From the NCBI GenBank assembly GCA_951800685.1, contig CATOJY010000004.1, forward strand, positions 1 through 64,000: a DNA stretch of 64,000 nucleotides. The letters run 5' to 3'. Each line of letters opens with the position of its first letter. The first letter of the stretch is position 1. The notes beneath the pieces were generated by a model. It was not told where the DNA came from, searched no databases, and worked only from the letters and a program-made list of their open reading frames with translations. This document shows positions 10,329-26,663 of the stretch, piece after piece. Both the position numbers and the translations under genes were made by a program. The DNA comes from an uncultured Lachnospiraceae bacterium (lineage in GTDB: Bacteria > Bacillota > Clostridia > Lachnospirales > Lachnospiraceae).

Positions 10329-11237
10329 ATGGTAGGATTGACAGAAATCATAAATTTTTTAAAGGAAGAAAAACTGAAATTTCAAACGCGTATCTCAAAG
10401 GAGGTAACGCTGACAGGTTTCTCCTCCCTGGATCATTATCGGCAGGGCACCATAACATGGGCTAAGAGTGCGGATAAGTGGCGGAAGGATATGCCGGATA
10501 TTGCGCTTTGCGTTGTACAGGAGGGGGTAGAGCTGCCACTTCCGAATCAGATCATCTGTGAGAATTCGAAAGCGGTGTTTTTTATGCTGATCGAGCGTTT
10601 CTTCACAGTGCAGGAAGAAAAAAAAGCGGCCATAGGAACAAATACCGTGCTCGGCGACCAGGTGACTCTTGGACATAATGTCAGGATTGGCCATAACTGT
10701 TCTATCACAGGAGATGTTGTCATAGGAGATGACACAGTGATTCACGATAATGTAGTGATCAGGCATAAAGTGCGTATCGGAAGCAGGTGTGTCATAGAGT
10801 CATTGACAATGATCGGTGAGGACGGATTCGGTGCGTATGAGACAGAAAACCATCGAAAGGTAATGATCAAGCATTATGGCGGTGTAACAATAGGAGATGA
10901 TGTTTATATAGGAAGCCATGTGGATATAGAGAGAGGAACGATTGATGATACTTATATAGGAGATGGTGTTAAGATTGCCCCGTTTACGTTGATTGCCCAT
11001 AATGGTTTTGTTGGCAGAGATAGCGTAGTGGTCTGTTCTCATTTATATGGGAGTGCCCATTTGGATGAAAATGCATGGGTAGCAGGCAGCATAGTTAAGA
11101 ACCAGTGCAGGGTAGGAGAGAATGCAGTGGTTGGGATTGGGACTGTCGTGACAAGAGATGTGCCGAAGGGAAAAGTAGTAGTTGGAGTTCCAGCCAGGAT
11201 ATTAAGGGAGAGTAGCGGGACGACACTGAAAGAATGA
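10329..11237 (+). CDS. LpxD-like UDP-amino-sugar N-acyltransferase
   Basis: 302 residues from ATG 10329 (AAGGA lies six bases upstream; ATG 10323 is the alternative). An N-terminal ~95-residue domain precedes a long left-handed beta-helix. The helix holds IERGTIDDTYIGDGV and IAHN, closely matching the active-site region of LpxD, whose catalytic histidine lies in IAHN (His codon at 10998-11000). LpxD adds 3-hydroxyacyl chains to UDP-3-acyl-glucosamine in lipid A synthesis, which monoderm bacteria lack. The protein therefore likely N-acylates another UDP-amino sugar for a surface glycan. It sits between a deacetylase and a CotH gene. Confidence 0.8.
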   Translation: MVGLTEIINFLKEEKLKFQTRISKEVTLTGFSSLDHYRQGTITWAKSADKWRKDMPDIALCVVQEGVELPLPNQIICENSKAVFFMLIERFFTVQEEKKAAIGTNTVLGDQVTLGHNVRIGHNCSITGDVVIGDDTVIHDNVVIRHKVRIGSRCVIESLTMIGEDGFGAYETENHRKVMIKHYGGVTIGDDVYIGSHVDIERGTIDDTYIGDGVKIAPFTLIAHNGFVGRDSVVVCSHLYGSAHLDENAWVAGSIVKNQCRVGENAVVGIGTVVTRDVPKGKVVVGVPARILRESSGTTLKE

Positions 11238-11269
11238 GAGAATAGGCCTGTGAGAGCAGGAGTACGGGA

Positions 11270-12868
11270 ATGATTAAAACATCAAAAAGAAAAAAAGTTA
11301 TTGTTATAATAATTTTATTAGGGACTTTGTTTTTTCTTGTAAATTGGACAGTGATTAAGGACAAGCTGGAACCAGGCTATATGTCAGCGAGGATAGCGGA
11401 CACAGACAGCCTTAAGGAGTTGCTTCATGGGCTTAAGGAGAAACTGGAGAAACCAGAGATTACCTTCAATGGACACGCGCTTGCTTATGATGCTCCAGGA
11501 GAATCCTATTATGTTACACAGAATATGGAGAATGGGGTATGGGATGGCATGTTCACCTGTGAAGATGGCGAATTGTATTGGCAGGAAGACAGTTACTTTG
11601 AGAGCTGCGAGCAGGCTATAGCAGAGGGACATAGATTTGTGCTGTACTGCATTGACAGGCGGGCAGGGTGGTATAGTACTTATCAGATCGTCTTTACAGG
11701 CATGCCCATGATCGATATTACAACACAGACAGGAGCGCCTATTGGTGACGATGTGCAGCCGGCACAAGTGCGGATCTGGGATATGAAGTTTCCTGGCAGT
11801 GAATATCAGAGTACAGCTTGTGAAGTATCAGTTCGCGGACAAGGCTCCCGTAATTTCGAGAAACAGGGATATAAACTGGCGCTTGATCATAAGTTGTCGT
11901 TACTGGGGATGCGGCGGGATGACGACTGGCTTCTCGGCGCCCTGTATGACGATGACGGCTTGATCCACAATAAGCTGTCCTATGACGTATGGAATGCTAT
12001 CGCTTCTGATAATGCAGTTACGAAAGATAATGGGACAAACCTGGAGTATGTGGAGTTGTTTTGTAACAATACGTATATGGGTGTCTATGGTCTGATGGAA
12101 CGGATTGATGCAAAGCAGGTTCCGTTAGAGAAAAATGATATTATGTACAAGTGCCGTGGTTTTGCGACTCCGGATGAGGAGATTGTAGAAGATTTCGGGC
12201 TTAGTGTGGATTATGATATTAAATATCCGAAAAACTATGATCGGGAAACCTGGATTCCGTTAAAAAATTATCTGGATATTTTTGCGGTTGATGGAGTCAG
12301 TGATTACGAAGCGGCACGTGCGTTGCTTGACATGGAAAATGCGATTGACTATAATATATTCATTATATTAACGCGTGCCTGTGATAATTATAACAGGAAA
12401 AATACTTTCTTTGTGGCGGACTACGACAAGAACTCTGGGACGTACAAAATAGTCAAAATACCCTGGGACTGCAATGCAACTTGGGGTGATGGTCTCTATA
12501 AGGGGAACATCGACCGCAAATTGTACAACGCCAGCTGGGCGTACTGTGCATGGGTATGGAGTGACGATATCAGGTCGATGTACAAATGTTATCCTGACGA
12601 AATTCAGGAAATGACACTGGCGCGCTGGAAACAGCTGCGGCAGGAGATCCTGTCTAAAGAGCGGTTGTTTCATATGCTGGATGAGGACTTTCATTATCTT
12701 CATGCGTCGGGAGCCTATGACAGGAATTATGTGCGTTGGAACGAGCATGGCCGGGAGCACTGGGAGGACAAGTATATCTATGAGTATATAGACAACAGAC
12801 TGCGGTTTTTGGATGCTTATTTTGAGGCGCCTTACTTCGATGAAGAACCGTTGTCTGAGGAAGGGTAG
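11270..12868 (+). CDS. CotH kinase family protein, membrane-anchored
   Basis: 532 residues. An N-terminal basic stretch and one membrane helix (residues ~7-24) anchor an external domain. The CotH core is clear: SVRGQGSRNFEKQGYKL, LLGALYDDDGLIHNKLSYD, EYVELFCNNTYMGVYGL and, near residue 400, PWDCNATWGDG in the position of the family's metal-binding Asp motif (usually WDFDxAxG). CotH of Bacillus phosphorylates spore coat proteins; most bacterial homologues are surface proteins of unknown target. AGGAG at 11258-11262 supports ATG 11270. VTC and DUF4956 genes follow directly, a recurrent trio. The DCN version of the Asp motif is slightly atypical. Confidence 0.85.
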   Translation: MIKTSKRKKVIVIIILLGTLFFLVNWTVIKDKLEPGYMSARIADTDSLKELLHGLKEKLEKPEITFNGHALAYDAPGESYYVTQNMENGVWDGMFTCEDGELYWQEDSYFESCEQAIAEGHRFVLYCIDRRAGWYSTYQIVFTGMPMIDITTQTGAPIGDDVQPAQVRIWDMKFPGSEYQSTACEVSVRGQGSRNFEKQGYKLALDHKLSLLGMRRDDDWLLGALYDDDGLIHNKLSYDVWNAIASDNAVTKDNGTNLEYVELFCNNTYMGVYGLMERIDAKQVPLEKNDIMYKCRGFATPDEEIVEDFGLSVDYDIKYPKNYDRETWIPLKNYLDIFAVDGVSDYEAARALLDMENAIDYNIFIILTRACDNYNRKNTFFVADYDKNSGTYKIVKIPWDCNATWGDGLYKGNIDRKLYNASWAYCAWVWSDDIRSMYKCYPDEIQEMTLARWKQLRQEILSKERLFHMLDEDFHYLHASGAYDRNYVRWNEHGREHWEDKYIYEYIDNRLRFLDAYFEAPYFDEEPLSEEG

Positions 12869-12936
12869 TGTTTGGGAAAATATATAAGGGTGGGGAAATT
12901 TCCGTATAGAGTTGGGATTTCACTTAGTATAAAATC

Positions 12937-13629
12937 ATGGAGAGTAGGATAATGTATCGGGTAGAAGACAAATATTGCTGTAGTCCAACAGAACTATTTC
13001 TGTTACAGGACAGAATAGGGGCCGTTTTGCAGCCGGACCGTAATGAAAACAGTGAGGATGGCTATAGCATTGTGAGTCTGTATTTTGATGATCTGGCGGA
13101 TAACTGTTACCAGGATACTCTGGATGGGTATGGAATTCGTGACAAATACCGTATTAGGATCTATAATCATTCGTTCGAAAATATCCGGCTGGAAGTGAAG
13201 CAGAAAAAGGACTCCAGAATCTGTAAGCAATCGAAGCGTATTGACCGGGAGCAGATGTACCGGCTGATTCATGGAGAGTGCATAGAGAGTGAGATGTCAT
13301 CAGAGGATCCGGCAACGCTTTTTAATGTTGCCATTCAGACACGCGGACTAAGACCGAAAGTGATTGTAGCTTATGAGCGCAAAGCATATGTGTTCGAGCC
13401 GGGTAATACGAGGATCACTTTTGACAGAAATATCCGGGCGAGCGACTGGATTGAGTGGTTTGGACAGGCGGATATTGCTTATGATCCATTGAGGGAACAG
13501 GATGCTGTGTTAGAGATCAAATATGATGAATTCATACCAGATTTTCTGTTGCAAATGCTGGAACTGGGGAATATGAGACAGACTGCCTATTCTAAATATC
13601 AGCTGTGCAGAGCGTTATATATAGATTAG
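12937..13629 (+). CDS. VTC-domain (polyphosphate polymerase-like) protein
   Basis: 230 residues, essentially one VTC domain of the triphosphate tunnel metalloenzyme fold. Signatures: YRVEDKYCCSP at the start, DKYRIRIYNHSFENIRLEVKQKK with alternating basic residues lining the tunnel, VAYERKAYV, TRITFDRNIRAS and the acidic strand AVLEIKYDE. In yeast the VTC domain polymerises polyphosphate from ATP; the bacterial versions near CotH have no proven reaction. ATG 12952 is an alternative start with AGGA close by. The order CotH-VTC-DUF4956 suggests a shared membrane function. A second VTC paralogue lies at 38334. Confidence 0.85.
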   Translation: MESRIMYRVEDKYCCSPTELFLLQDRIGAVLQPDRNENSEDGYSIVSLYFDDLADNCYQDTLDGYGIRDKYRIRIYNHSFENIRLEVKQKKDSRICKQSKRIDREQMYRLIHGECIESEMSSEDPATLFNVAIQTRGLRPKVIVAYERKAYVFEPGNTRITFDRNIRASDWIEWFGQADIAYDPLREQDAVLEIKYDEFIPDFLLQMLELGNMRQTAYSKYQLCRALYID

Positions 13630-13690: not shown

Positions 13691-14371
13691 ATGTCAGTCA
13701 AGGATGTAATCAAGAGAAGCGTGTATGAGAGTTTAGGAGGGGGAACGAATTTGTCCGCCTTGAATGTGGTGTTAATCATTGGGATTGCCTGCCTGGTAGG
13801 GCTTTATATTTTCTATGTATATAAATTGACTACCAAATCGGCCTTTTATTCCAAGGATCTGAATGTGACGATGGCTGGTCTCCCCTTAATTATAGCGGCG
13901 ATCATGATTGCAATGCAGTCGAATCTTCTGGTTTCTCTCGGTATGGTAGGAGCGCTGTCCATCGTCAGATTCCGTAATGCAGTCAAGAATCCGTTGGATC
14001 TTTTGTACCTATTCTGGTCAGTCAGTGCAGGTATCATCGTGGGAGTGGGACTTTATGTACTTGCGTTTATTCTCTGCATTGTGATGACAGTGCTTCTTCT
14101 TGTTCTGGATATGATACCGAATGCTAAGGCACCGGACTTGCTTGTGCTTCGGGGCGCGGCAGATGGAATGGATTATGATGGAGTCGAAAAGATTTTGAAA
14201 GAGTGCAGTAAGTATCACAAGGAGAAATCCAGAACGATTAAGAACCGTGAAGTGGAGCTGATTATCGAAGTCAGATCGTCTGAGAGAGAAGAGATGCTGC
14301 GGAGGCTGAGCGCTATGGACAAGCTTACGCAGGTAAACTGCATTGCGCATGATGGGGAATGCAGGATATAG
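13691..14371 (+). CDS. DUF4956 membrane protein
   Basis: 226 residues. Three or four membrane helices in the first ~150 residues, with the family signature SLGMVGALSIVRFRNAVKNP between helices, then a soluble ~75-residue domain (ELIIEVRSSEREEMLRRLS) resembling a small ACT-like or ferredoxin-like fold. DUF4956 has no established biochemical function but occurs repeatedly with VTC and CotH genes. GAGGAGAAATTT precedes ATG 13691. Closest relative in the window is the protein starting at 46891. It is the last gene before the RADAR-like unit. Confidence 0.85.
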   Translation: MSVKDVIKRSVYESLGGGTNLSALNVVLIIGIACLVGLYIFYVYKLTTKSAFYSKDLNVTMAGLPLIIAAIMIAMQSNLLVSLGMVGALSIVRFRNAVKNPLDLLYLFWSVSAGIIVGVGLYVLAFILCIVMTVLLLVLDMIPNAKAPDLLVLRGAADGMDYDGVEKILKECSKYHKEKSRTIKNREVELIIEVRSSEREEMLRRLSAMDKLTQVNCIAHDGECRI

Positions 14372-14380
14372 AGTAATATA

Positions 14381-14423
14381 TTGGTGAAGCAATACGTATA
14401 TACTATATAAAACCGTATTGCTT
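14381..14423 (+). promoter_or_regulatory. Inverted repeat with possible promoter ahead of the RADAR-like operon
   Basis: A perfect 10-bp inverted repeat (AAGCAATACG 14387-14396, CGTATTGCTT 14414-14423, 17-base loop) lies between the DUF4956 gene and the next unit. TTGGTG (14381-14386) and TATATA (14404-14409) at 17-base spacing form a possible promoter, so the arms would flank its -10. No T-run follows the repeat, which makes a simple terminator less likely than an operator. The promoter call is weak. Confidence 0.45.
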
Positions 14424-14453
14424 CGGCAGCCTATTGGCTGATAAGGAAATAAT

Positions 14454-15779
14454 ATGGACAGAATCAGGATGTTCTATAGTAATATAGATACAAAGCCAAG
14501 AGTGTTGATCACTCATTTTGTTCGGTTTCTTGGCTTTTATGTCGAAGGGATTACGAACAAGGACAATATCGTAATAAATAATGTAGAGTCTGTGATAGAT
14601 ATTTACATTATCAGTGATGCCTATGTGGAGGAGAGAACTACATCTATAGAGGTGCAAGAAGAAGAGAAATCTATCCTGATCTACCTGGATGGATGGGGTT
14701 CGGATGATCTGCAGGATCTTCTATCGATTCATTATGACGATCAGGCAGATCAGATTTTCTTACAGCAGTTATCGCAGCACATCCTGCACATTGTTTCAAG
14801 ACGTGTGGATAGGAATAAGAGGTTGATTGGCAGTGCGGACAGTTTACGCGGGCTGTTAGGTGTTTTCATTAAACAATATATAGACAACGACATTTTACAG
14901 ATTACATTATTTGCCAGGTGTTTTCGCGCGCATTATGTCCTATATAAGATAGTTCAAAAAAAATACCGTTCTTTTGTTGCGTGGCTTGAGCAGATGGCGG
15001 CTTCAGAATACGCTTGTGATCTGACAAATTATATGTGTGTCAGATCGAAATATGAAGTGGATTTGATCTGCAAAGTGAATGGATTTAAACTTTATTTTGA
15101 TCCGGAAGAGCTGCGGGAAGTTTGCGAAGAGTTGCTGCGAAAGTATGTTGACAATGAGACGCTGCATATCCTGCAGGCAGATATCAGTTTTGAATTAAAT
15201 GAGGTATGGAACAAGGCAGGGAATGAATATGCGGATATCCGCTTGAATGATTGTGCTTACGCTTATTTAAAGCAGGGAATTATATTGCAAAATTATGTGA
15301 GGGATCTAGACACTGCTTTGCTCGCCTATAGGGTGGCAGTCCAGGAAAAAGAGGACTACTATCTGGCATGGTCTCAGATGGGGGAATGCTATGAGAAGCA
15401 GAATAAGCATAGCCGGGCAGCCGATGCGTACGAGCAGGTATGCTTGATTCTGTCTGGCAGGTATCATCAGCATGTACTCGCGCCTTTGGAAATTGAGCAT
15501 CTATATAATGCAGTTGTAAGGAGCGCAGTCATCAATGAAGTAATGCTTAGAAATTATGCGCTTGCCAGATATTATAGGGAACTGGCAAAGAGTATTTTAG
15601 AAGAAATTGACAGAGACGATTACTTCAAGCTGGTATGGGATGATGAAAAAGCATACAAAATGTATTTTCCACTTGTAAAAGATAAGATGAAAGTTGAAAT
15701 AGAGGGAAAAACGGGAAACGAAGGGAGACAGATTTATGGAACAAGAGAGGAAAAAAGAAGGGACAATCACGTTACGTGA
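14454..15779 (+). CDS. TPR protein of unknown function, first gene of the RADAR-like operon
   Basis: 441 residues, no signal peptide or membrane helix. I do not recognise the N-terminal ~110 residues; alternating hydrophobic strands (RVLITHFVRFLGFY, DIYIISDAY, KSILIYLDG) suggest an alpha/beta fold, perhaps flavodoxin-, receiver- or TIR-like. A helical middle region follows, then about two or three TPR-like repeats from residue ~268 to ~380 (AYLKQGIILQNY, LAWSQMGECYEKQNK, AADAYEQV). The last 44 bases overlap rdrA, whose ribosome binding site lies inside this gene, so the two are translationally linked. It does not resemble the small membrane accessory proteins known from RADAR loci. It could be a phage sensor, adaptor or regulator; that is inference. 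Confidence 0.75.
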   Translation: MDRIRMFYSNIDTKPRVLITHFVRFLGFYVEGITNKDNIVINNVESVIDIYIISDAYVEERTTSIEVQEEEKSILIYLDGWGSDDLQDLLSIHYDDQADQIFLQQLSQHILHIVSRRVDRNKRLIGSADSLRGLLGVFIKQYIDNDILQITLFARCFRAHYVLYKIVQKKYRSFVAWLEQMAASEYACDLTNYMCVRSKYEVDLICKVNGFKLYFDPEELREVCEELLRKYVDNETLHILQADISFELNEVWNKAGNEYADIRLNDCAYAYLKQGIILQNYVRDLDTALLAYRVAVQEKEDYYLAWSQMGECYEKQNKHSRAADAYEQVCLILSGRYHQHVLAPLEIEHLYNAVVRSAVINEVMLRNYALARYYRELAKSILEEIDRDDYFKLVWDDEKAYKMYFPLVKDKMKVEIEGKTGNEGRQIYGTREEKRRDNHVT

Positions 15780-18318
15780 GAGTAATCGCCCGGTTCTGGA
15801 GTCTTTGAAGGATATTTCAAATTCTATTTTTAAAGGAGTATACCAGCAGGCTGACAGGACGCTGTTCAGAGTGATCGAGGATAATGAGAAATATAAAGAA
15901 GAAGAGGGAATGGATCGGCAGGGACTCAATGTTGTTTCTTTTCTTGGAGGGAGAGGAAGAGGAAAGACATCAGCGCTGCTTTCCTTTCTTTCATGCTTAA
16001 ACGAACTACAAAAGGAAATTGAATGGAGTAAGTTTAATAAGAATGAAAATAAAAAAATCCAGTTTGTCACGCTGCCTTATATCGATGCCGCGATGCTGGC
16101 CGAAGCAGAGTATGTTATTGATGTCATACTGGCGGAGATGTGGGATCAGTTTGAGGGACATACGAAGCGCAGTGTTAATTCACACAACGCTGAGTTTGAA
16201 AGACTGGAGCGGGATATCAAGCAGCAGTTTATTAATGTCCGGCAGGCGTATCTGCTCTTAAAGGAAAGAGAAGATGGCAAAACGGGATTTCATGAGAAGG
16301 AAGTGCCTGTTCCGAGCGCACTGCATGATTTGGCGGCGAGTATTAATCTAAGGGATGAACTGCAGAAGCTGATAAATGATTATCTCAAAATATTTCAGTA
16401 TGGCAGTTTTGATGGAAAAGGAGAGTGTTATTTAGTCATTGCGATTGATGACGTGGATATGAGTGGTCAGAAGGCCCACTTTATTTTGGAACAGATCAGA
16501 AGATTTCTGCGTGTACAGAAAGTTGTTATTTTTATCACAGCAGATATCGACAGGCTCCAGCAGGGATGTGAAGCCCGCTATCAACAAATTTATACAGAGA
16601 AAGATGACAGACGGAAATTCATTAACGAATATCTGGAAAAGGTTCTGCCATACAATATGCGGATTTATATGCCAGAAATAAGAGAAAAGCATGGGGAGAT
16701 TCCGCTTGATACAGAAGCAAAAAAGATGCTCAATCTGACAAGCGATAATGAAAAAGATATGATTCTGGAATTTATGGCAAAAAAATGCGGCATTTATTTT
16801 GACGGGAATCGGCGAAAAAGGCATTTTCTGCAAAATCAATCAATGCGGAGTATGGTTAATTATTTCGAACAGATTGTGAGGATGGAGGAGGAATGTCTTG
16901 CCTGGCTGAAAATTGATTTAAAAGAAAGAATCATTGAAAGAATACAGGACATAAAGCAAAAGCGTTTCATGCTAGAGCTATTATCAAAGGATTATGAGGA
17001 GATCAATAACTATTTGATCACATATTTGGAAATAGATGATTATGGGTTTTCCCAGAAAAGAGGAATAGGGAAGGAGAAGAGTATGGGACGGGCATTGTGT
17101 GCCTGCCATTCCTATGAAGGAAGCGACGCCCGGAATGCCGAATTTGTAGATGCAGTTATCATGCTGTATTCTATTATTTTAAAACAGGCTGATGAGGATA
17201 CAAGAGAAAGGGTGATTGGAAAGAGCTTATTGGGTGAGTGGGAATATAGTCTGATATCTTCCAATGAAGAGAGTACCTCATTTTGCCAGTCTTTTGATCT
17301 ATTGGGCAGCCTGGATCTAGAGACTGATACTATTAGCGCGGAGGAATTAAAAGGTATTGACGTACAGGAACTTGTGATAAAGATTATAAGAGATAATAAA
17401 GCAGAGATCGTTTCCTGGTTGTGTTCCTTGTTCTATGTTACATTGGACGTAGAGGAGGAAATCGAGTTCGTGCTGCAAGAAATGTATTGGGAACCAGATT
17501 CGGAAGATGAAGGGGACGATTTTACGTGGGATCTCCTCAATATGCAAATTAAAGAGGACATAGATGAAGAGAATTTACCGACGGAAGATATGCCAGTGGA
17601 TCATTCACCAGCAGATGCTTCCTCAGGTGCCGATGAGTATAAGATGAGACTGACAATTAAGTTGAAGCCAATGACGAATGCGCGCAAGAATTATCTGACC
17701 AATGCGTTTAAGGAAGAGGGAGAAATAAAAAGTCAATGTGATGCCCTATTTTTAGGGGTGCTGAGTGCTCTTACGAGATGGCTGGAAGAAAAGAGAGGAG
17801 AAGAGAGACACCAGGTAATAGAGGAAAACCTGTGTAAAGCACTGCTAGATGAAATATTGGCGGAAGCCGGTATTATACCGGAGCGGAACGCTTCATCGGG
17901 AGCGGATGCTGTTTTAGATGAGAATGCCGAAAGGCGGAGTGATACGATAGAGGCAGATGGGCAGGATCATACGCTGATCAGTGTTGAATTACTGTACAGC
18001 ATTGGTAAAGTTCTTTCGAATCAGGTGCGGACCTATGAGTTTGATGAGAAAGAAGCATACAGAATGCTGCAGTCGAGCTACCAGCTAGTTAAGAAGGAAC
18101 TGCATAAGCGGGATGCATATTTTAATAAACTCCAAATAAAAACAAATTTTGAGGACAAGTTTGAGCACAGTCTGCCAGCGAAAGTGTTATTATTACCGGA
18201 TTTTCTAGGTCAGGTAGAACGAAAAAAATTTGAAATGCGGCTGGGAGAACTTCTGATGGAATACCGGGGTAAGACAACGGTATTGCAGAAATCAATGACG
18301 AGGGCAGCATTGTCATAA
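15736..18318 (+). CDS. rdrA: RdrA-like P-loop ATPase of a RADAR-type defence system
   Basis: 860 residues. Walker A is GGRGRGKT at residues 71-78; Walker B is VIAIDDVD with Asp238-Asp239, followed by IFITADIDRLQQ, a sensor-like segment. This layout fits the KAP/STAND-like AAA+ ATPase RdrA, usually around 900 residues. RdrA forms ring assemblies that cooperate with the deaminase RdrB. The C-terminal half is helical, interrupted at residues ~590-630 by an acidic, Pro/Ser-containing linker. AAGGGAGA at 15721-15728 supports ATG 15736. It overlaps the TPR gene by 44 bases and is 14 bases from the deaminase gene. Identification rests mainly on the pairing with an ADA-fold protein of RdrB size. Confidence 0.8.
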   Translation: MEQERKKEGTITLRESNRPVLESLKDISNSIFKGVYQQADRTLFRVIEDNEKYKEEEGMDRQGLNVVSFLGGRGRGKTSALLSFLSCLNELQKEIEWSKFNKNENKKIQFVTLPYIDAAMLAEAEYVIDVILAEMWDQFEGHTKRSVNSHNAEFERLERDIKQQFINVRQAYLLLKEREDGKTGFHEKEVPVPSALHDLAASINLRDELQKLINDYLKIFQYGSFDGKGECYLVIAIDDVDMSGQKAHFILEQIRRFLRVQKVVIFITADIDRLQQGCEARYQQIYTEKDDRRKFINEYLEKVLPYNMRIYMPEIREKHGEIPLDTEAKKMLNLTSDNEKDMILEFMAKKCGIYFDGNRRKRHFLQNQSMRSMVNYFEQIVRMEEECLAWLKIDLKERIIERIQDIKQKRFMLELLSKDYEEINNYLITYLEIDDYGFSQKRGIGKEKSMGRALCACHSYEGSDARNAEFVDAVIMLYSIILKQADEDTRERVIGKSLLGEWEYSLISSNEESTSFCQSFDLLGSLDLETDTISAEELKGIDVQELVIKIIRDNKAEIVSWLCSLFYVTLDVEEEIEFVLQEMYWEPDSEDEGDDFTWDLLNMQIKEDIDEENLPTEDMPVDHSPADASSGADEYKMRLTIKLKPMTNARKNYLTNAFKEEGEIKSQCDALFLGVLSALTRWLEEKRGEERHQVIEENLCKALLDEILAEAGIIPERNASSGADAVLDENAERRSDTIEADGQDHTLISVELLYSIGKVLSNQVRTYEFDEKEAYRMLQSSYQLVKKELHKRDAYFNKLQIKTNFEDKFEHSLPAKVLLLPDFLGQVERKKFEMRLGELLMEYRGKTTVLQKSMTRAALS

Positions 18319-18332
18319 TTGAGGTACGCAAG

Positions 18333-21179
18333 ATGGATAACATACGCAACGTATTACGGATTCTTTTCCGCCACACATCATCACAGGAAGTTCTGGATCA
18401 GAACAGTAATTATCCGTATGTCAACAAGAAGAGCTTCATGAAGCTTGCCAATGTGTATATGGCACAGTATTCGAATAATGAGATAGAGAATATGTTTCAT
18501 TATCTGAGTTCTGAATTTGAATGGCATAATAACAAGATGCGTAGCAGAGCTGCTTTGTGCGGACAGCGGGAAGTCAATGCATTTGATGCGTTACTTCTTT
18601 TTGTAGATAACGTTCTGGTGGAAGAGAACGGAGTTCCCCTGTGTTGTTATGAACATTTGCTCCGTTGGCGTGAAATGACGGTTGAGCTGGATGAGGATCT
18701 GTTTACGACGGCTTTTTTCGCACAAAAAGATCTGCAATGCTCCATATCACACAGAAGTTTTTTCTGGCCTCCGGTCATAGGACACAATAATAAGTCTCTG
18801 AACCGGCTTATGGCACATGGTGTTGCGGAGAATCATTTCCACCTTAAAGGATCCGCGCCGCTATTCCACCTATCGTGGTGCAGCATGATGATGGACGTCT
18901 GCAACAAAGATTTTAAGAAAATGTTTGATTTCTGCGATGATAACAGGATGTATCTGAATATTAATTATCGGGTCAAATATGTAGATACAACACTGTACAT
19001 CGCATATCTGCAGGCGGCGTTGATCAGATTGTATCTGTTTGCCTGTCTGGTGGGAGAACCCTTTATACTGGATCGGGAGTATGTGGAGTATTCCATGATC
19101 AAACCATATCTGAAGCTGCCGCTTGACGATCAGGATGACGGGAGAAGACTGCATGAGAAAGTCCGTCTGGAAGACTATAGAGACAAGTTTGACTCTGTGG
19201 AGAGCTATCAGAGGATCATGTGGTATATCCTTAGGGAGGAAGTGGAGGAACTTTTGCATGACCACCAGATGCTGCAGTATTCCCTGGGGAAGATACAGAA
19301 TAAGATTCGGTATATGCAGAGCCAATATGCGCCAGATGAACTGGATTATACGATCTGCCGAAGGCATTTGTCTAAAAACCCTGACAGGCATCTGAATGAG
19401 GTGATCAGTGGTGAGCGCTGGTTTTTGTATGAGATTTTCAAAAAAATCTATTCGGAAGATGAAAGTTTTCTCTACAATACGAAGCTGTTTTATGCATATT
19501 TACTGGTCAAGGAAAGTATACGTGCAGAATTGATTCAGGTAAATCATAATGTAGGATTCCAGAATTTCCTGCTGTATCAGAACAGGAAAGAGTCCTTTGT
19601 CGAAAACACGCCGTTTGAAGAAGTCTATTTGAGAATGGCAGTGAGGGATACCATATTAAATCAACATATTACGAAACTGGAAGCGCGGATCACACCGAAA
19701 GACAGCGTGGAGAAAATAAGGAGTTCTATTGAAAAAAACGATAAGACAATCCTGGCATTAGAGACGAGTAAGGAGAAGAGAAAAAAATTACAGGACAAAT
19801 TTTTCTACGTGTGCCATTTTATTAAGGAAAAGGATTTCGCATTAGAGAAACTGGATTCAATGCAGGGAAAGCTGTCACAGTTTGAAGCATATTGCAGACA
19901 TGATAAAATTCGGAGGGATGTAAAAAAGCAGGCACATGCTATCCTGGAATTCCGGCGCAAATATGAGAAGCTGGGACAACGGATCAGAGGGATAGATGCA
20001 AGTTCTGAAGAGATCGTATGCCGGCCGGAAGTGTTTGCGCAGGCCTTCCGGTTTCTGAGGAATAGAGCTGTCAGTCACATAGATCACATCACAGGAGTGG
20101 TACGGCAGATGCCGGATTTGTGTATTACGTATCATGTTGGAGAAGATTTTCTGGATCTTATCGATGGGCTGCGTGCGATTGATGAAGCGGTATCATTTCT
20201 GAATATGCGGTGTGGTGATCGTCTTGGACATGCCCTGGCATTGGGTGTGGATGTAGACGAGTGGTATGCGTCTAAGTCAGGCCGGATACTGATCACGCAG
20301 ATGGATTATCTTGATAATCTGGTCTGGCTGTACTCTATCATTCGCAAATACCGCATCGAGGGTTGTGAGGACGCAATGCATTATATCGAGAAAAGATATG
20401 ATGAATACTTCCGCATTATCTATCTGAACAACATGGATGAGGCGTATTATTCCATGGTAGTGGAAGATGCAGTGAAGTACTATGATGAGAGAAAGATTCA
20501 GAATATGTATGGCAATAAGACGTGCCTGTTCCCCATCAATACCTATTATGACTCCTGGAAACTCCGCGGAGATAATCCAGAATATTTCAGGAAAGGATTT
20601 TTTGATCTGGAGGCGAGTACCAGAACGGAATGGGACGAGTACGGTATCAACAAAGAGTTTCCGGAAAACTACCGGATCCGGTATAATCCAGAAGCCGCCT
20701 ATCTCTACCACATGTACCACTATAATCCCAGAATCAAACGGGAGGGAAATAAATGTGTGGAGATCAAGGTGAATCTATCTATCATAAAGGCGGTTAGGAA
20801 AGTACAGAAGAAATTACAATGGGTGGTTGCACAGAAGGGAATTGGCATAGAGACGAATCCTTCCTCGAATGCGCTGATCGGCACATTTAAGAGATATGAT
20901 AAGCATCCCATCCAGAACTGGTATAACAATGGTCTGGTCACCGACCATAAGCAGCTGGCAGAAGCGCCGCAGATCCAGGTGTCGATCAATACAGATGATC
21001 AGGGAGTTTTTGCCACTTACATTGAGAATGAGTATGCCTACCTGGCGCTGGCGCTGGAGAAGATGAGGGATGAGGATGGGAATCCCAAATACAGCAGGAC
21101 CATTATTTATGAGTGGATAGACAATATCCGCAGGATGGGGTTGGCGCAGAGCTTTGAGGAGGCGGATCTTCATGATTAA
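18333..21179 (+). CDS. rdrB: RdrB-like adenosine deaminase of a RADAR-type defence system
   Basis: 948 residues, far longer than housekeeping adenosine deaminase (~350). All ADA motifs are present in order: metal ligands His168 and His170 (ENHFHLKGS), His601 with catalytic Glu604 (YHVGED), His633 (DRLGHALALG), the ETNPSSN block at 840-846 and Asp888-Asp889 (SINTDDQG). About 430 residues separate the first His pair from the third His, against about 200 in normal ADA; the excess includes a lysine/glutamate-rich helical stretch around residues 445-560. RADAR RdrB deaminates adenine nucleotides (RNA adenosine, ATP to ITP) and builds a large shell contacting RdrA. The gene follows rdrA by 14 bases and ends in a terminator. 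Confidence 0.85.
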   Translation: MDNIRNVLRILFRHTSSQEVLDQNSNYPYVNKKSFMKLANVYMAQYSNNEIENMFHYLSSEFEWHNNKMRSRAALCGQREVNAFDALLLFVDNVLVEENGVPLCCYEHLLRWREMTVELDEDLFTTAFFAQKDLQCSISHRSFFWPPVIGHNNKSLNRLMAHGVAENHFHLKGSAPLFHLSWCSMMMDVCNKDFKKMFDFCDDNRMYLNINYRVKYVDTTLYIAYLQAALIRLYLFACLVGEPFILDREYVEYSMIKPYLKLPLDDQDDGRRLHEKVRLEDYRDKFDSVESYQRIMWYILREEVEELLHDHQMLQYSLGKIQNKIRYMQSQYAPDELDYTICRRHLSKNPDRHLNEVISGERWFLYEIFKKIYSEDESFLYNTKLFYAYLLVKESIRAELIQVNHNVGFQNFLLYQNRKESFVENTPFEEVYLRMAVRDTILNQHITKLEARITPKDSVEKIRSSIEKNDKTILALETSKEKRKKLQDKFFYVCHFIKEKDFALEKLDSMQGKLSQFEAYCRHDKIRRDVKKQAHAILEFRRKYEKLGQRIRGIDASSEEIVCRPEVFAQAFRFLRNRAVSHIDHITGVVRQMPDLCITYHVGEDFLDLIDGLRAIDEAVSFLNMRCGDRLGHALALGVDVDEWYASKSGRILITQMDYLDNLVWLYSIIRKYRIEGCEDAMHYIEKRYDEYFRIIYLNNMDEAYYSMVVEDAVKYYDERKIQNMYGNKTCLFPINTYYDSWKLRGDNPEYFRKGFFDLEASTRTEWDEYGINKEFPENYRIRYNPEAAYLYHMYHYNPRIKREGNKCVEIKVNLSIIKAVRKVQKKLQWVVAQKGIGIETNPSSNALIGTFKRYDKHPIQNWYNNGLVTDHKQLAEAPQIQVSINTDDQGVFATYIENEYAYLALALEKMRDEDGNPKYSRTIIYEWIDNIRRMGLAQSFEEADLHD

Positions 21180-21190
21180 CAGTATATCAT

Positions 21191-21229
21191 CGCAGAATAA
21201 CGATACCACGTTATTTTGCGGTGTTTTTC
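21191..21229 (+). terminator. Rho-independent terminator closing the RADAR-like operon
   Basis: A 12-bp stem (CGCAGAATAACG / CGTTATTTTGCG, one G-T wobble) with loop ATACCA is followed by GTGTTTTTCTTT. It starts 12 bases after the rdrB stop codon, so the defence genes form their own transcription unit at the 3' end. Confidence 0.85.
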
Positions 21230-21428: not shown

Positions 21429-24400
21429 ATGGTATCTACTTCTATGATCAAAGGACAACATAGTAAAATATTTCGTTACCTGGCCGGTTTCCTCTGTCTT
21501 GTCCTGTGCTTGACAAGCAGTCCAGTACAGGTGTCTGCGGCAGATGTCTCTATAACGGACGGGATTGGTACAATAGGGAATATAGCGAGTGGAGATGAAC
21601 TGAACAACATAGATGTACCCTCGGACAGCGGCGCCCCAAATGATAGTGGAAATTCGAATGGGCCGGCAGGCGAAGATGAAAATTTGGACACTGATAATTC
21701 TGATTCTACCGAGGGTGATCCTGGTGATGATGGTACAGAAGATGGCAAGCCGGAAAATCCAGATGAAGGGGAGGATGGCAGTGGGGAGCAAAGCGATGCG
21801 GAAAATCCTGGAGCTGGAGATGTTGACAATGCGGATGGCGATTCTGAGGATACAGAGAATTCTGATCCAGATCAAGGGAATACGGAAACCGGTGACGCAG
21901 ACAATGCGGAACCGGATCTTGATGATGCCCAGGAGGACCAGAACCTTTCGGATGACATTTCTGACAGTGAACTTGATGTAGATAGTGTTTCCGGGAACGA
22001 TTTGTCGTCTGTTTCTGAAAATGATCTATCCTCTGTCTCTGAGAACAGCCTGGATGAAGAACGTGCAGTTATGATCGATGCGGCGGAGGAAGCCTTTCTG
22101 GGGCTGCTTTCTGAGAAAAATCTGATGGCGCTTCTCTATCATACGGACACGTACAATGTGTGCAGCGAACCGGCGGAGGAAAGTGAGAGCGATGCGCTGC
22201 TTGAAATTGGCCAGACATTGTATATGAGAGGGATCAAGATTACAGAGGACGATGTATGGTATGAAGTACAGTTCTGGCTGAATGGCGTAGAAGGTACGGG
22301 TTATGTACAGAACTATTATCTGGCATATTCGGATGAAGACTGGCTCGCGTGGGAGGAGGAGTATCTGTTTCCGATTCTGGAAACGGGGGAGGAATATGGA
22401 ATCTCCGCCTATGGGATGCAGTCTTCCTCTAGGATGCCGTATAGTGTAAACACTTCTGATATCTCGGCTTTTCCGGCCTCTTATCAGAGTGCGCTCAGAA
22501 GCCTGAAAAATGCACATCCTAACTGGACTTTCGTACCCATGAAAACAGGATTGGATTTCAATACAGTGATATCAAAAGAAATGGGTCTCAAAAGCCTGAT
22601 TCAGAAGACGACAAGTAATGTCTCTAAAGGATGGGTAGGAGACATATGTCCAGCTGAAAAAGGCTGGTATTATGCGACCAGACCTGCAGTACAATATTTT
22701 ATGGATCCGCGTAACTTCCTGACAGAGACTTATATTTTCCAGTTTGAGCAGCTAACGTTTAACGCTTCTTATCACACACAGTCAGCGGTACAGACCTTTT
22801 TGAATACAACGTTTATGAAAGGCATACTGCCGGACGATTCCGCGAAGCGTACTTATGCCCAGGCGTTTTATGAGATTGGAAAGAAGAGACGGCTAAGTCC
22901 TATTCATCTTGCATCCCGCGTATACCAGGAACAGGGGCAGGGGACTTCTGGATTGATTTCCGGTAAATATCCAGGTTATGAAGGATATTACAATTTCTTT
23001 AACGTAGACGTCTATGGGGCTTCCACAGCAGAGAAAATTACAAGAGGACTGACTTACGCGAAAAGTAAGGGCTGGAATACCCGCTATAAATCTCTTGAGG
23101 GAGGCGCCGCGACAATCGGCAATAATTACATTCTTAAGTATCAGGACACGCTCTATCTGGAGAAATTCAATGTAGATAAGAACAGTCCTTACGGGCTTTA
23201 TGAGCATCAATACATGCAGAATATCCAGGCGCCTACCAGTGAGGCTTCCAGCACGAAAAAAATGTATACCAGTGCAGGTACATTAAACTCGGCGTTTGTA
23301 TTTAAGATTCCAGTATACAATAATATGCCGAATGACAGCGGCGTGGAGGAACCAGAGGAACCGGAACCAGAACTGCCGCCTGTGCTGAAATTGAATAAAA
23401 CGGCGCTGAAATTGGATCGGAGCAAAGCCAGCGATTATGAGGTTGGTCAGCAATTAAGGCTGTATGCCGATGGTATTGAGGTGACGGATTTTGAAGCGCA
23501 TCCGGCAGCTGCGGCAGAAGATCTTGCTCTGGCAGCAGATTCGCCTGAGAAAGTCAAATGGACCAGCAGCGATGAAGCCGTCGTGAAAGTTGTCATTGAG
23601 AATGGACAAGTTATGGTCAGGGCAGTGGATAAAGCGCACGGAGGAAAACCGGGGGAAGCTACTGTTACGGCGTCCTACAAAGACGTAGAGATATCCTGTA
23701 AAGTGACAGTGCAGGCTTCTTTACAAAGTATTTCTCTGGATAAGACAAAGATTGCACTCCGCAGGCCGGATACGGTGGTGGAAGATGTTACAGGACTTAG
23801 TGTGGCAGAGAGGGCAGAGAATAAAGATACGGAAGTGTTGCAGGTGTCGTTTGACCCTGATGATACTACGTCGAACAAGACAATTGTGTGGACCTCGTCT
23901 AATACCAGGGTAGCAAAGGTCACGGTTATTGCGAATCCAGACGATCCGACGGATTGTTCCAGGGCCACTGTGACTGCAGTGGGCAAAGGAGAGGCTGTAA
24001 TTACAGCAAAGGCCTCGAAGGCAGGGGTAAGTCCAGTCAGGACAGCTGCTTGCAATGTAAAGGTGAGCGCACCGATTTACCAGGCGGCATTATCCAATCC
24101 GAATGCGAAAGAGACGGATTCGGAAGAGCGGACGACACTTCTGGCAGGACAGAGTGTGAATCTGGCAGCAGAGTACTGGCCGAAGGACACCACGTCTGAT
24201 ACACAGGTGTCCTGGAGCAGTTCTAATGAAAAGGTCGCTATTGTCAGGAATGGCAGAGTGGAAGCAAAGAGCAAAGGAACAGCTGTGATCACAGCGAAGG
24301 TGGCAGGGTGTGCGCAAGGGTATACAGCGAAGCATACCATTGCAGTGGAAGAATGCTATGTTGCCTTTATGAAAGAAAATGGTGACCCTGATAATAGTAA

Positions 24401-26663
24401 GGATATTTTGAAGAAGCTGCCAGTGCTTTATGGCACAAGAGTAACAGAGCAGGAATTTCCTGAGAAGCCAGGGGAGGAAGGAACAGATAACAGAGTTTTC
24501 ATCGGATGGTATACAGGAAAAAATGGGACAGGAAGCCGGTTTGACGCCGCCACAGTGATCCATGAGAAGGAGACTTTTCTGTATCCGTATTATGAAGAAC
24601 AAGGTCAGGGATTCTATGTACTGCCTGTGGGAGATCAGGTTTATACAGGCAGTACCATAAAGCCGGTGGTGCAGGTATATGACAGTGTACGCTATGAGGA
24701 TGGCAGCAGGGAGCTGATTGAGCTTGTTTTGAATAAGGACTACACTGTTTCTTATAAGAATAACAAGAACGTCAATCTGGAAGGGAAAGCGGTACCAACC
24801 GTTACAGTCAGAGGTAAAGGCAATTATGCAGGAACAGAGACAGTGCTTTTCAATATTGTGCCGAAAGCATTGACGGATACAGACATCACGGCAGATGATA
24901 TTACGGTGGCTTACAGCGGCAGAGCGATCAAAAGTGTGCCGGTGGTCTACCGGAATGGAAAGCGGCTTGCGCGGAATGTCGATTATACGCTAACCTATCC
25001 TCAGACGGGAACTGGCGCGTACCAGACTGCAGGCACTTATCCGATCCTGATCAAGGGGAAAGGCGGTTATACCGGAGCGATCACAGTTTACGAGACAATT
25101 ACGCAGAACGTGCTGATGAGCAAAGTTTCGGTTGCGAAGATACCTAACCAGACTTACAGAAATGAGCTGGTCGATAAAGAACAGGGAATCGGTATCAGCC
25201 CGGAGAGCCTGAAAGTGACATACAAGAAAGAAATATTGACAGAGAGCACAGATGGCGGTTTGACGGGGGATTATACGGTATCTTATAAGAATAATACTGC
25301 AGTGGGAACTGCTACGGCGACGATCACGGCTGTAGAAGGAAGCGGATTCAGCGGCAGCAAGAGCATCACCTATAAAATTGTAGGGACATCCATCTCCAGA
25401 GCGAAGGTGGAAGGAGTGGAGAACAAGGAATACACGGGAACAGAGGCAGATGTAAAGCAGGATCCTGATTCCTATACGCTGACATTAAATAATCGCGTGC
25501 TGACAGAGAGTGAGGACGGCGGTGTCACGGGAGATTATATTGTCTCTTATTCCAATCTTTCCAAAGCAGGTACGGCGACGATCCTGTTTAAGGGGATCAA
25601 CGAGTATACAGGTCAGATTAAGAAGAGCTATAAGATAACAGGCTACAATATCAGCCCGGATGAATCGGGTAGAAATCCTGCTATTGAAATGCAGTATTAT
25701 ACGCAGGATGCACCGGATAAGCTTCTGGGGATCGAAGATTTATCCCAGATTGTGACACCTTATATGAAAGGGGGAAGCAAGCCGGGAGTGCTCCTTCGCT
25801 TCAACGGAATGGAGCTGCAGCCAGGCAAAGATTATACGGTTAAATATGTGAACAACAATGCAGTCACCACAGTGGAGATGGCGGAGAAGAAGCTTCCGAA
25901 GATCACGATCACCGGAAAAGGAAGTTTCAAGGGAACTATTACAGGTTATTTTAAGATTACCGATGGACAGATGTCGCAGGGGAATGGCAAACTGACGATG
26001 ACAGCAAAGGATATCGTGTACAGGAAACGGAAGAATGCTTATAAAAGCTCGGCGATTCTGACAGACTGTAATGGCGCGAGACTGGCAGCAGGCAGAGATT
26101 ATGAGAAAACACTTGTCTATACGTATGTAGATGACAGTATGAAGATGGAATATGACAAGGGTGTCATATCAAAACAGGGCGCTGGACCTTCCAATGTGGA
26201 CAATTCCCTGGGGACAGATACGCTTACAGGACAGGAAGGACTGATCAACGGAGAGGTGCCAGTAGGAGCAGACGATATTCCGGAAGTTGGGACCTTGATT
26301 CGTGTTACCGCATATGGCAAAGGCTGTTATGCAGGAGATGGAACTGCCGCAATCTCGACGGTTTACCGAATCGTGGCGGCAGATATTTCCAAGGCCAAAG
26401 TCAAAGTGCAGGCTAAGGAATACCGCAACGGACAGCCGGTAACCTTGAAGGAGGAAGACCTGCAGCTTACGATCAGTGGCAGTCCGGATTCTTTACAGTA
26501 CGGGATCGATTATGTGATTGACGCAAATACCTATACGAAGAATCAGAATAAGGGCAAGGCGACGGTGGTCATACGTGGACTAGGGAATTATGGGGGAGAG
26601 AAAAAGATTAGTTTCACGATTGGAAGCAAAAAACTGGTGTGGTGGAAAAATTTGCTGTTATAA
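21429..26663 (+). CDS. Giant secreted glucosaminidase with Ig-like (Big) and InlB-type repeats
   Basis: 1744 residues. A signal peptide covers residues ~1-38 (hydrophobic core FLCLVLCL, cleavage near VSAA). An acidic low-complexity linker (~40-200) is followed by an SH3-like region (~225-310) and a LytG/Atl-type N-acetylglucosaminidase domain (~350-620), with Glu501 in HLASRVYQEQG as the expected catalytic acid. Next come two or more Big_2 domains (KVKWTSSDEAVVKV, NKTIVWTSSNTRVAKV, QVSWSSSNEKVAIV), one InlB-type repeat (FIGWYTGKNGTG) and several ~80-residue beta repeats with DYTVSYKNN. No LPxTG, SLH or membrane anchor is seen. It likely cleaves peptidoglycan glycan strands at the cell surface. 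ATG 21444 is an alternative start. Confidence 0.85.
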   Translation: MVSTSMIKGQHSKIFRYLAGFLCLVLCLTSSPVQVSAADVSITDGIGTIGNIASGDELNNIDVPSDSGAPNDSGNSNGPAGEDENLDTDNSDSTEGDPGDDGTEDGKPENPDEGEDGSGEQSDAENPGAGDVDNADGDSEDTENSDPDQGNTETGDADNAEPDLDDAQEDQNLSDDISDSELDVDSVSGNDLSSVSENDLSSVSENSLDEERAVMIDAAEEAFLGLLSEKNLMALLYHTDTYNVCSEPAEESESDALLEIGQTLYMRGIKITEDDVWYEVQFWLNGVEGTGYVQNYYLAYSDEDWLAWEEEYLFPILETGEEYGISAYGMQSSSRMPYSVNTSDISAFPASYQSALRSLKNAHPNWTFVPMKTGLDFNTVISKEMGLKSLIQKTTSNVSKGWVGDICPAEKGWYYATRPAVQYFMDPRNFLTETYIFQFEQLTFNASYHTQSAVQTFLNTTFMKGILPDDSAKRTYAQAFYEIGKKRRLSPIHLASRVYQEQGQGTSGLISGKYPGYEGYYNFFNVDVYGASTAEKITRGLTYAKSKGWNTRYKSLEGGAATIGNNYILKYQDTLYLEKFNVDKNSPYGLYEHQYMQNIQAPTSEASSTKKMYTSAGTLNSAFVFKIPVYNNMPNDSGVEEPEEPEPELPPVLKLNKTALKLDRSKASDYEVGQQLRLYADGIEVTDFEAHPAAAAEDLALAADSPEKVKWTSSDEAVVKVVIENGQVMVRAVDKAHGGKPGEATVTASYKDVEISCKVTVQASLQSISLDKTKIALRRPDTVVEDVTGLSVAERAENKDTEVLQVSFDPDDTTSNKTIVWTSSNTRVAKVTVIANPDDPTDCSRATVTAVGKGEAVITAKASKAGVSPVRTAACNVKVSAPIYQAALSNPNAKETDSEERTTLLAGQSVNLAAEYWPKDTTSDTQVSWSSSNEKVAIVRNGRVEAKSKGTAVITAKVAGCAQGYTAKHTIAVEECYVAFMKENGDPDNSKDILKKLPVLYGTRVTEQEFPEKPGEEGTDNRVFIGWYTGKNGTGSRFDAATVIHEKETFLYPYYEEQGQGFYVLPVGDQVYTGSTIKPVVQVYDSVRYEDGSRELIELVLNKDYTVSYKNNKNVNLEGKAVPTVTVRGKGNYAGTETVLFNIVPKALTDTDITADDITVAYSGRAIKSVPVVYRNGKRLARNVDYTLTYPQTGTGAYQTAGTYPILIKGKGGYTGAITVYETITQNVLMSKVSVAKIPNQTYRNELVDKEQGIGISPESLKVTYKKEILTESTDGGLTGDYTVSYKNNTAVGTATATITAVEGSGFSGSKSITYKIVGTSISRAKVEGVENKEYTGTEADVKQDPDSYTLTLNNRVLTESEDGGVTGDYIVSYSNLSKAGTATILFKGINEYTGQIKKSYKITGYNISPDESGRNPAIEMQYYTQDAPDKLLGIEDLSQIVTPYMKGGSKPGVLLRFNGMELQPGKDYTVKYVNNNAVTTVEMAEKKLPKITITGKGSFKGTITGYFKITDGQMSQGNGKLTMTAKDIVYRKRKNAYKSSAILTDCNGARLAAGRDYEKTLVYTYVDDSMKMEYDKGVISKQGAGPSNVDNSLGTDTLTGQEGLINGEVPVGADDIPEVGTLIRVTAYGKGCYAGDGTAAISTVYRIVAADISKAKVKVQAKEYRNGQPVTLKEEDLQLTISGSPDSLQYGIDYVIDANTYTKNQNKGKATVVIRGLGNYGGEKKISFTIGSKKLVWWKNLLL

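What the first reader, a model, noticed from the sequence alone, without database searches (positions are those of the whole stretch)
14454..21179. RADAR-type anti-phage system (RdrA ATPase + RdrB giant adenosine deaminase) inside a surface-glycan locus
Seen: an 860-residue protein with Walker A (residues 71-78) and Walker B (Asp238-Asp239), followed 14 bases later by a 948-residue protein with every ADA catalytic motif (His168/His170, His601/Glu604, His633, Asp888/Asp889). Known: RADAR couples an RdrA ATPase to a ~900-residue RdrB deaminase that converts adenine nucleotides to inosine nucleotides on phage infection. Inference: this pair is a functional RADAR relative in a monoderm commensal. 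The unit ends at its own terminator and lies among envelope genes rather than in an obvious defence island.
Basis: partly seen in the sequence, partly recalled or inferred. Interest (0 to 1): 0.9.

Follow-up and report, generated by a model that had tools for sequence, protein, structure and literature searches.

The report
RADAR phage defence with third gene
A gut bacterium carries a distant version of the RADAR anti-phage system, which is thought to spoil the cell's ATP during infection, and this version comes with a conserved extra gene, apparently not described before, that may help it sense the phage.

Summary
An 860-aa P-loop ATPase and a 948-aa deaminase lie 14 nt apart with every quoted motif in place. 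They are RdrA and RdrB homologues (NCBIfam E 9e-15 and 8e-61; solved RdrB chains 1.5e-26, ordinary ADA 0.01), though far below NCBI's naming cut-offs. Zinc-His/Glu spacings near the active site equal those published for E. coli RdrB.

AlphaFold gives a TIR/receiver-like domain plus a TPR solenoid (pLDDT 89). In 397 Lachnospiraceae genomes the family has 8 strong matches, each directly upstream of rdrA-rdrB (up to 4 candidates scored per genome). These systems form one group in the RdrB tree (92/100), and the third protein's divergence tracks RdrA (r 0.92) more than RdrB (0.75). At this site 18 genus relatives lack all three genes, so they look like one inserted cassette.

Best reading: a three-gene RADAR variant in which the third protein is an adaptor or sensor for RdrA, and RdrB poisons the (d)ATP pool. 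Homology and linkage are shown; activity and the adaptor role are inferred. It is none of the three subtypes I found described.

The parts
14454..15779 (+). Third gene ('T3', my label): 441 aa; TIR/receiver-like alpha/beta domain (residues about 1-118) followed by a TPR solenoid (about 120-420)
   Evidence: narrow family; AF2 pLDDT 89; the 8 strong matches in 397 Lachnospiraceae genomes all lie beside RADAR
15736..18318 (+). rdrA homologue, 860 aa, KAP/AAA+-type P-loop ATPase; starts 44 nt inside the third gene
   Evidence: PADLOC RdrA 3.8e-7; KAP_NTPase 2.8e-5; NF041743 8.7e-15; Walker A/B
18333..21179 (+). rdrB homologue, 948 aa, large adenosine deaminase-fold protein with the complete zinc/catalytic site
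   Evidence: PADLOC RdrB 2.1e-38; NF041744 8.2e-61; PDB 8fnv/8fnw 1.5e-26
21188..21223 (+). terminator-like hairpin closing the unit
   Evidence: 15-pair stem plus T tail; 11 terminator-like sites in the region against a mean of 4.0 in shuffles
14386..14424 (+). 11-bp perfect inverted repeat (17-nt loop) between the DUF4956 gene and the third gene; possible regulatory site or cassette edge
   Evidence: one match in the window, none in 100 shuffles; the 11-base arm: of 160 loci searched only L059 and L089 match, both from the window's own contig
13691..14371 (+). left flank: DUF4956 membrane protein of the surface locus; nucleotide homology to genus relatives stops at or near its end
21429..26663 (+). 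right flank: large secreted cell-wall-type protein whose homologue follows the same VTC-DUF4956 module, without RADAR in between, in 9 of 18 genus relatives examined

Best explanation
This is a three-gene RADAR variant, T3-rdrA-rdrB, inserted as a cassette in a surface-glycan locus of a Lachnospiraceae species. RdrB is expected to assemble into a shell of ADA-fold deaminases that convert ATP/dATP to ITP/dITP. RdrA, a P-loop ATPase expected to form a ring, is expected to dock on it and switch it on in infection, so that the nucleotide pool is poisoned and phage replication fails. The extra protein, a TIR/receiver-like domain fused to TPR repeats, shows no recognisable catalytic residues and co-diverges with RdrA. 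It is best read as an adaptor or sensor that binds RdrA and gates its response to a phage cue. Shown: homology, conserved active sites, gene order, RADAR linkage of the third gene in the genomes sampled, cassette-like insertion. Inferred: nucleotide deamination, anti-phage action, and the adaptor role.
For: RdrA/RdrB family matches. Catalytic His/Glu and Walker motifs in an alignment with 40 other RdrB rows, among them Aliivibrio rdrB annotated as RADAR. The spacing from the third to the fourth zinc His is 32 residues, equal to H498-H530 in E. coli RdrB. Third gene: a profile built only from the window's own subfamily finds 6 of 7 distant upstream genes at E 1.3e-6 or better and the seventh (L046) at 0.011, the best unrelated ORF scoring 0.19. 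In 397 Lachnospiraceae genomes 8 places match strongly, all immediately upstream of rdrA-rdrB; the next match is E 1.3e-7 and covers repeats only. Gap from third gene to rdrA is -89 to +119 nt in 10 of 10 systems. Systems with it form one side of a branch in the RdrB tree, one change against 9.9 for shuffled labels. Distance correlation with RdrA is 0.92 and with RdrB 0.75; partial correlations are 0.86 and -0.49. In 18 genus relatives this site lacks all three genes. For 10 of the 18 other database homologues of the third protein, the longest contig has exactly the length reported for a listed RdrA or RdrB homologue. Mechanism of RADAR: passages of PMC9994260.
Against: Both proteins miss the NCBI equivalog cut-offs by a wide margin. 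RdrA's match to the solved RdrA chain is weak (E 0.02), and its ring and C-terminal lobe were not modelled. All 8 strong matches were members of the profile used, and at most 4 candidates per genome were scored, so that call shows no strong match elsewhere rather than an independent discovery or a proof of absence; 55 further genomes have weak matches that I take as repeat-only. The link between the window's third protein and its distant relatives (13-17% identity) rests largely on the TPR part; single-sequence profile comparison is weak for L046 (10%) and L051 (31%). Support for the third-gene group is 92/100, just under the starred threshold, and the root is a midpoint. Co-divergence with RdrA may partly reflect similarly fast evolution; only 10 systems were compared. 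No expression, phage or ITP data exist.
Confidence: 0.7

Rival explanations
1. The third protein is a chaperone or inhibitor (antitoxin-like) that keeps the toxic deaminase off, or helps the giant complex assemble, rather than sensing phage.
For: TPR solenoids are typical protein-binding scaffolds (fold matches). Overexpressed RdrB alone is toxic in E. coli (PMC9994260 passage). The overlap with rdrA suits co-translation and stoichiometric binding.
Against: It tracks RdrA rather than RdrB in divergence; other RADAR systems manage without it.
Confidence: 0.25
2. The third protein is a second effector: an active TIR-type NADase domain regulated by TPRs.
Confidence: 0.07
3. The third gene is a passenger of the cassette without a role in RADAR.
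For: 15 of the 26 rows of the window-type RdrB group lack it in the sequence held (some of these loci are cut at contig ends).
Against: Present in front of rdrA in 10 of 10 systems of its group, with RdrB identity down to 35%; no strong match away from RADAR in 397 genomes (up to 4 candidates scored each); co-diverges with RdrA.
Confidence: 0.08
4. The ATPase-deaminase pair serves purine metabolism or the envelope locus, not defence.
For: It lies in a surface-glycan locus; PADLOC finds only one weak candidate among 36 other window ORFs scanned.
Against: The site is found without it in 18 genus relatives. RADAR is patchy (12 of 77 genomes of the genus). Other Lachnospiraceae RADARs sit with Csx27-like, DUF4231 or dGTPase genes. 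RdrB and RdrA family matches.
Confidence: 0.06

Closest known systems
RADAR, standalone subtype (rdrAB; Gao et al. 2020 as summarised in PMC7699616; structures in PMC9994260)
   Same: Adjacent rdrA-rdrB, ATPase and deaminase active sites, large insertions splitting the ADA core
   Different: Extra conserved third gene upstream, overlapping rdrA; sequence far below the NCBI equivalog cut-offs
Csx27- and SLATT-associated RADAR subtypes (PMC7699616, PMC11676413 passages)
   Same: RADAR with a partner gene
   Different: The partner here is a predicted soluble TIR/receiver-like plus TPR protein, not a small membrane protein; related loci L045 and L046 carry both the third gene and a Csx27-like gene (PADLOC)
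Ordinary adenosine deaminases (PF00962, TIGR01430)
   Same: Same zinc/glutamate catalytic motifs
   Different: 948 aa against model lengths of about 330; much weaker match (E 1e-8 against 8e-61)

Membership tests
RADAR (broad sense, PMC9994260) | RdrB with ADA zinc-histidine tetrad and catalytic Glu | tested here: met
   H168, H170, H601, H633, E604 aligned with annotated RdrB; H-x-H, H-x-x-E and His-32-His spacings match E. coli H152/H154/H498/E501/H530
RADAR (broad sense, PMC9994260) | Large insertions that split the deaminase core and build a dodecamer | tested here: inconclusive
   Insertions are present by length (433 residues from first to third His against 346 in E. coli numbering); the oligomer is not testable here
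RADAR (broad sense, PMC9994260) | RdrA P-loop/AAA+ ATPase | tested here: met
   NF041743 E 8.7e-15, KAP_NTPase 2.8e-5, Walker A/B intact
RADAR (broad sense, PMC9994260) | RdrA helical C-terminal lobe, heptamer, crown contacting RdrB | not tested
RADAR (broad sense, PMC9994260) | rdrA and rdrB adjacent, same strand | tested here: met
   14 nt apart
RADAR (broad sense, PMC9994260) | ATP/dATP to ITP/dITP conversion and phage defence | not testable with these tools
   Needs experiment
NCBIfam equivalogs NF041743 (RdrA) and NF041744 (RdrB) | Score above the curated cut-off | tested here: not met
   54.2 of 600 and 206.6 of 800 bits; 0 of 397 Lachnospiraceae genomes pass the RdrB cut-off
Csx27-associated RADAR | Csx27-like membrane gene in the operon | tested here: not met
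   Neighbours are the third gene and DUF4956 upstream and a 1744-aa secreted protein downstream; no Csx27 model at E 1e-5 among 36 other window ORFs
SLATT-associated RADAR | SLATT gene in the operon | tested here: not met
   Only a 70-aa ORF, overlapping the rdrB end, starts between rdrB and the next gene
TIR domain (third protein N-terminus) | TIR fold | tested here: inconclusive
TIR domain (third protein N-terminus) | NADase catalytic Glu | tested here: inconclusive
   No invariant Glu in the close family; E31 is nearly invariant but lies in strand 2; the catalytic position is recalled, not superposed

The most novel reading that the evidence does not exclude
RADAR has an exchangeable partner slot in front of rdrA: lineages have each recruited a different protein there (here a TIR/receiver-TPR protein; elsewhere a phosphoribosyltransferase-like protein or a dGTPase) that supplies phage sensing or a nucleotide-acting step, and the TPR protein is a dedicated sensor that opens the RdrA-RdrB machine.
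Probability: 0.4. Interest if true: 0.75.

Novelty: new variant of a known kind. Interest (0 to 1): 0.55.

Why it matters
How RADAR detects phage is not settled in the passages I read; PMC9994260 only suggests that the RdrA C-terminus may sense. A conserved, RADAR-linked third protein that co-diverges with RdrA is a direct handle on that question. The work also shows that RADAR homologues are common in this gut genus (12 of 77 genomes) against 270 of about 38,000 genomes in one published survey (PMC9994260), and that none of 397 Lachnospiraceae genomes reaches NCBI's RdrB naming cut-off although 15 carry a clear homologue.

Tried and rejected
Ordinary ADA or AMP deaminase: rejected by match strength.

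Defence island: not supported; PADLOC finds one weak candidate (PDC-M51A, 2.3e-8) at E 1e-5 among 36 window ORFs of 120 aa or more (the three RADAR genes and the two large secreted proteins were not in that set).

Phage or plasmid origin of the cassette: no match in 50,697 phage records; 7 plasmid records with distant RdrB, best 37.7% identity; 6 viral contigs with distant RdrB, none with the third gene in the sequence held, one of them (L109) being cut before rdrA.

Third gene as a known family: 0 PADLOC matches; NCBIfam shows only a weak TPR-type hit; in Pfam the 25 of 45 families listed for its members are mostly TPR models plus low-scoring others, and none is TIR or a receiver. The full-length model's structure search was filled by TPRs, so the N-terminal domain was folded alone; TIR and receiver then tied. 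A profile search of solved sequences gave TPR-containing chains in the 60 of 93 rows shown.

Structure of RdrA or RdrB: not run, cap spent on the third protein.

Literature: RADAR + RdrA + RdrB, 4 papers. In PMC9994260 the terms accessory, TPR, third gene, SLATT and Csx27 do not occur. RADAR + adenosine deaminase + anti-phage + tetratricopeptide, 0 papers; RADAR + adenosine deaminase + Lachnospiraceae + defense system, 0; RADAR + deaminase + TPR + phage defense, 1 paper on the TIR protein SpbK, seen in the listing only. The library misses most subscription journals; Gao et al. 2020 was seen only through passages of two reviews. Every paper cited was seen as passages, none as a whole.
Full report
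OBSERVATION. A terminator-like hairpin follows the rdrB stop.

RADAR HOMOLOGY. The 948-aa protein matches NCBIfam RdrB at E 8.2e-61 (TIGR01430 adenosine deaminase only 9.7e-9) and PADLOC RdrB at 2.1e-38. The 860-aa protein matches NCBIfam RdrA at 8.7e-15, PADLOC RdrA at 3.8e-7 and Pfam KAP_NTPase at 2.8e-5. Against solved sequences the deaminase finds the RADAR RdrB chains (8fnv, 8fnw) at 1.5e-26 and ordinary ADA at about 0.01; the ATPase finds the 8hr7 ATPase chain only at 0.02. Scores are well below NCBI's equivalog cut-offs (54 of 600 and 207 of 800 bits), so this is a divergent relative. In an alignment of 41 RdrB rows (two of them, L001 and L152, the same contig), including Aliivibrio rdrB annotated as RADAR, the window has all catalytic motifs; HxH and H(V/A)GE are present in 41 of 41 rows, the last zinc His is missing in L050, the DD pair reads DN in L157 and L158, and L001, L110 and L152 are cut before it. 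The spacing from the third to the fourth zinc His is 32 residues in the window, as in E. coli RdrB H498-H530 (PMC9994260, passages).

THE THIRD GENE. A search of 5.8 billion proteins (6011 candidates scored) found 19 proteins, one being the window's own; for 10 of the 18 others the longest contig has exactly the length reported for a listed RdrA or RdrB homologue, which suggests linkage. Neighbourhoods of 43 loci were read (window, L001, L002, L034-L051, L109-L117, L148-L160). Eleven rows, being 10 distinct systems (L001 and L152 are one contig), have the third gene directly upstream of rdrA. Seven of them are only 13-17% identical to the window protein. A profile from the window's own subfamily alone finds six of these seven at E 1.3e-6 or better and L046 at 0.011, against 0.19 for the best unrelated ORF; the seven also match one another by BLAST. 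Much of that similarity lies in the TPR part. A profile of the whole family, searched through 397 Lachnospiraceae genomes, gave 8 strong matches, all next to RADAR; the next best is E 1.3e-7 and covers only repeats; 63 genomes have any match. All 8 were members of the profile, and up to 4 candidates per genome were scored, so this shows that no strong match was seen elsewhere, not that none exists. In the same 397 genomes 15 have a clear RdrB (22 genomes with a match, 7 of them with about 26 bits or less; up to 2 candidates scored), so 8 of 15 RADAR-bearing genomes carry the third gene; one of the other seven (G252, L037) is cut before rdrA is complete. In a class sample of 321 genomes four RADAR loci outside the family (L177-L180) lack it; a fifth hit (G1115) is a fragment. 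In a phylum sample of 398 genomes the only clear RdrB was the window's own.

EVOLUTION. In a maximum-likelihood RdrB tree (41 rows with 600 or more residues; L111 and L160 dropped as fragments) the third-gene systems are one side of a branch with support 92/100, needing one change against a shuffled mean of 9.9, 0 of 500 shuffles as low. The root is a midpoint and some branches are long. Among 10 systems the third protein's distances correlate with RdrA at 0.92, with RdrB at 0.75, and RdrA with RdrB at 0.90; partial correlations are 0.86 (RdrA given RdrB) and -0.49 (RdrB given RdrA). The third protein and RdrA diverge fast while RdrB is more conserved. I infer that the third protein works with RdrA; similar evolutionary rates are an alternative reason.

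SETTING. The flanks are a surface-polysaccharide/envelope locus. PADLOC finds one weak candidate among 36 other window ORFs scanned. In 18 genus relatives with the same VTC-DUF4956 module, none has any of the three genes in the stretch fetched; 9 of 18 go on to the homologue of the protein that follows RADAR in the window, one of them directly (L134). Four of these 18 genomes (G799, G817, G822, G828) do carry other RdrB homologues elsewhere. Nucleotide homology with the relatives stops at or near the end of the DUF4956 gene on the left and resumes inside the next gene on the right, from about 21975. The three genes thus look like one inserted cassette. The glycan setting recurs: UBA7202 (L001/L152) has FkbM and ABC-transporter genes upstream; S29_Bin3 (L002) has MBOAT; another genus member (G822, L157) carries a RADAR of the other deep type, with a Csx27-like gene, about 5 kb upstream of the same VTC-DUF4956 module; L158 and L155 adjoin NeuB/cytidylyltransferase and NTP-transferase genes. 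Other RADAR loci do not look like glycan loci (for example the flanks of L038, L043 and L049, read by eye), and no control for chance was made, so I treat surface loci as a plausible insertion site, not a functional link.

PREVALENCE. In the window's genus 12 of 77 genomes carry a clear RdrB (13 with a match, one weak). PMC9994260 reports RADAR in 270 of about 38,000 genomes.

MECHANISM. Shown: homology, active sites, order, linkage, cassette-like insertion. From the literature: RdrB converts ATP and dATP to ITP and dITP, and RdrA forms a heptameric funnel whose addition enhances the conversion; the signal sensed is called unknown (PMC9994260 passages). Inferred: the window's pair does the same, and the third protein is an RdrA-directed adaptor or sensor. 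Chaperone/inhibitor is the main rival.

NOVELTY. Reviews of Gao et al. 2020 list standalone, Csx27-associated and SLATT-associated RADAR (PMC7699616 and PMC11676413 passages). The third gene is in none of these and matches no PADLOC model. Text searches for a TPR partner found nothing relevant, though most subscription papers are not held. I call it a new variant of a known kind.

Noticed in passing
L153:4026-5870, L154:535-2367, L110:5522-7303: A related 594-615 aa protein sits directly upstream of rdrA in another RdrB subclade (L153 vs L154 41% identity; both about 23% to L110). It has a phosphoribosyltransferase-like motif (LLCDDVCIHGRN in L153; motif recalled); no Pfam family passes its cut-off, and L153's protein has no PDB match.
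   Followed up: partly
L155:3580-5586 and 10778-13408: A RADAR flanked by an HD-domain dGTPase (PADLOC 2.6e-82) upstream and a leucine-rich-repeat protein downstream, another nucleotide-acting partner.
   Followed up: partly
G029, G176, G364, G345, G806: Genomes that carry two RADAR systems of different deep types; in G029, G176 and G364 one of the two is a third-gene system.
   Followed up: no
L157 (G822:C11): A RADAR of the other deep type with a Csx27-like gene lies about 5 kb upstream of the same VTC-DUF4956 surface module as in the window.
   Followed up: partly
L050:9275-11755: The rdrB of this third-gene system lacks the segment with the last zinc histidine; it may be decayed or misassembled.
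   Followed up: no
window:14386-14424: Perfect 11-bp inverted repeat just upstream of the third gene, unique in the window; its arm occurs in no other of 160 fetched loci except two stretches of the window's own contig.
   Followed up: partly
L002:11043-15844: Downstream of a third-gene RADAR lie a 1263-aa protein with a weak nSTAND NTPase match and a 337-aa protein, possibly a further defence unit.
   Followed up: partly
L115 (NZ_AP025306.1, Aureibacter tunicatorum plasmid pAT1): A Bacteroidota plasmid carries a RADAR whose RdrB is 37.7% identical to the window's over 82% of it, with a SLATT-annotated gene downstream and no third gene in the stretch read, suggesting transfer across phyla.
   Followed up: partly
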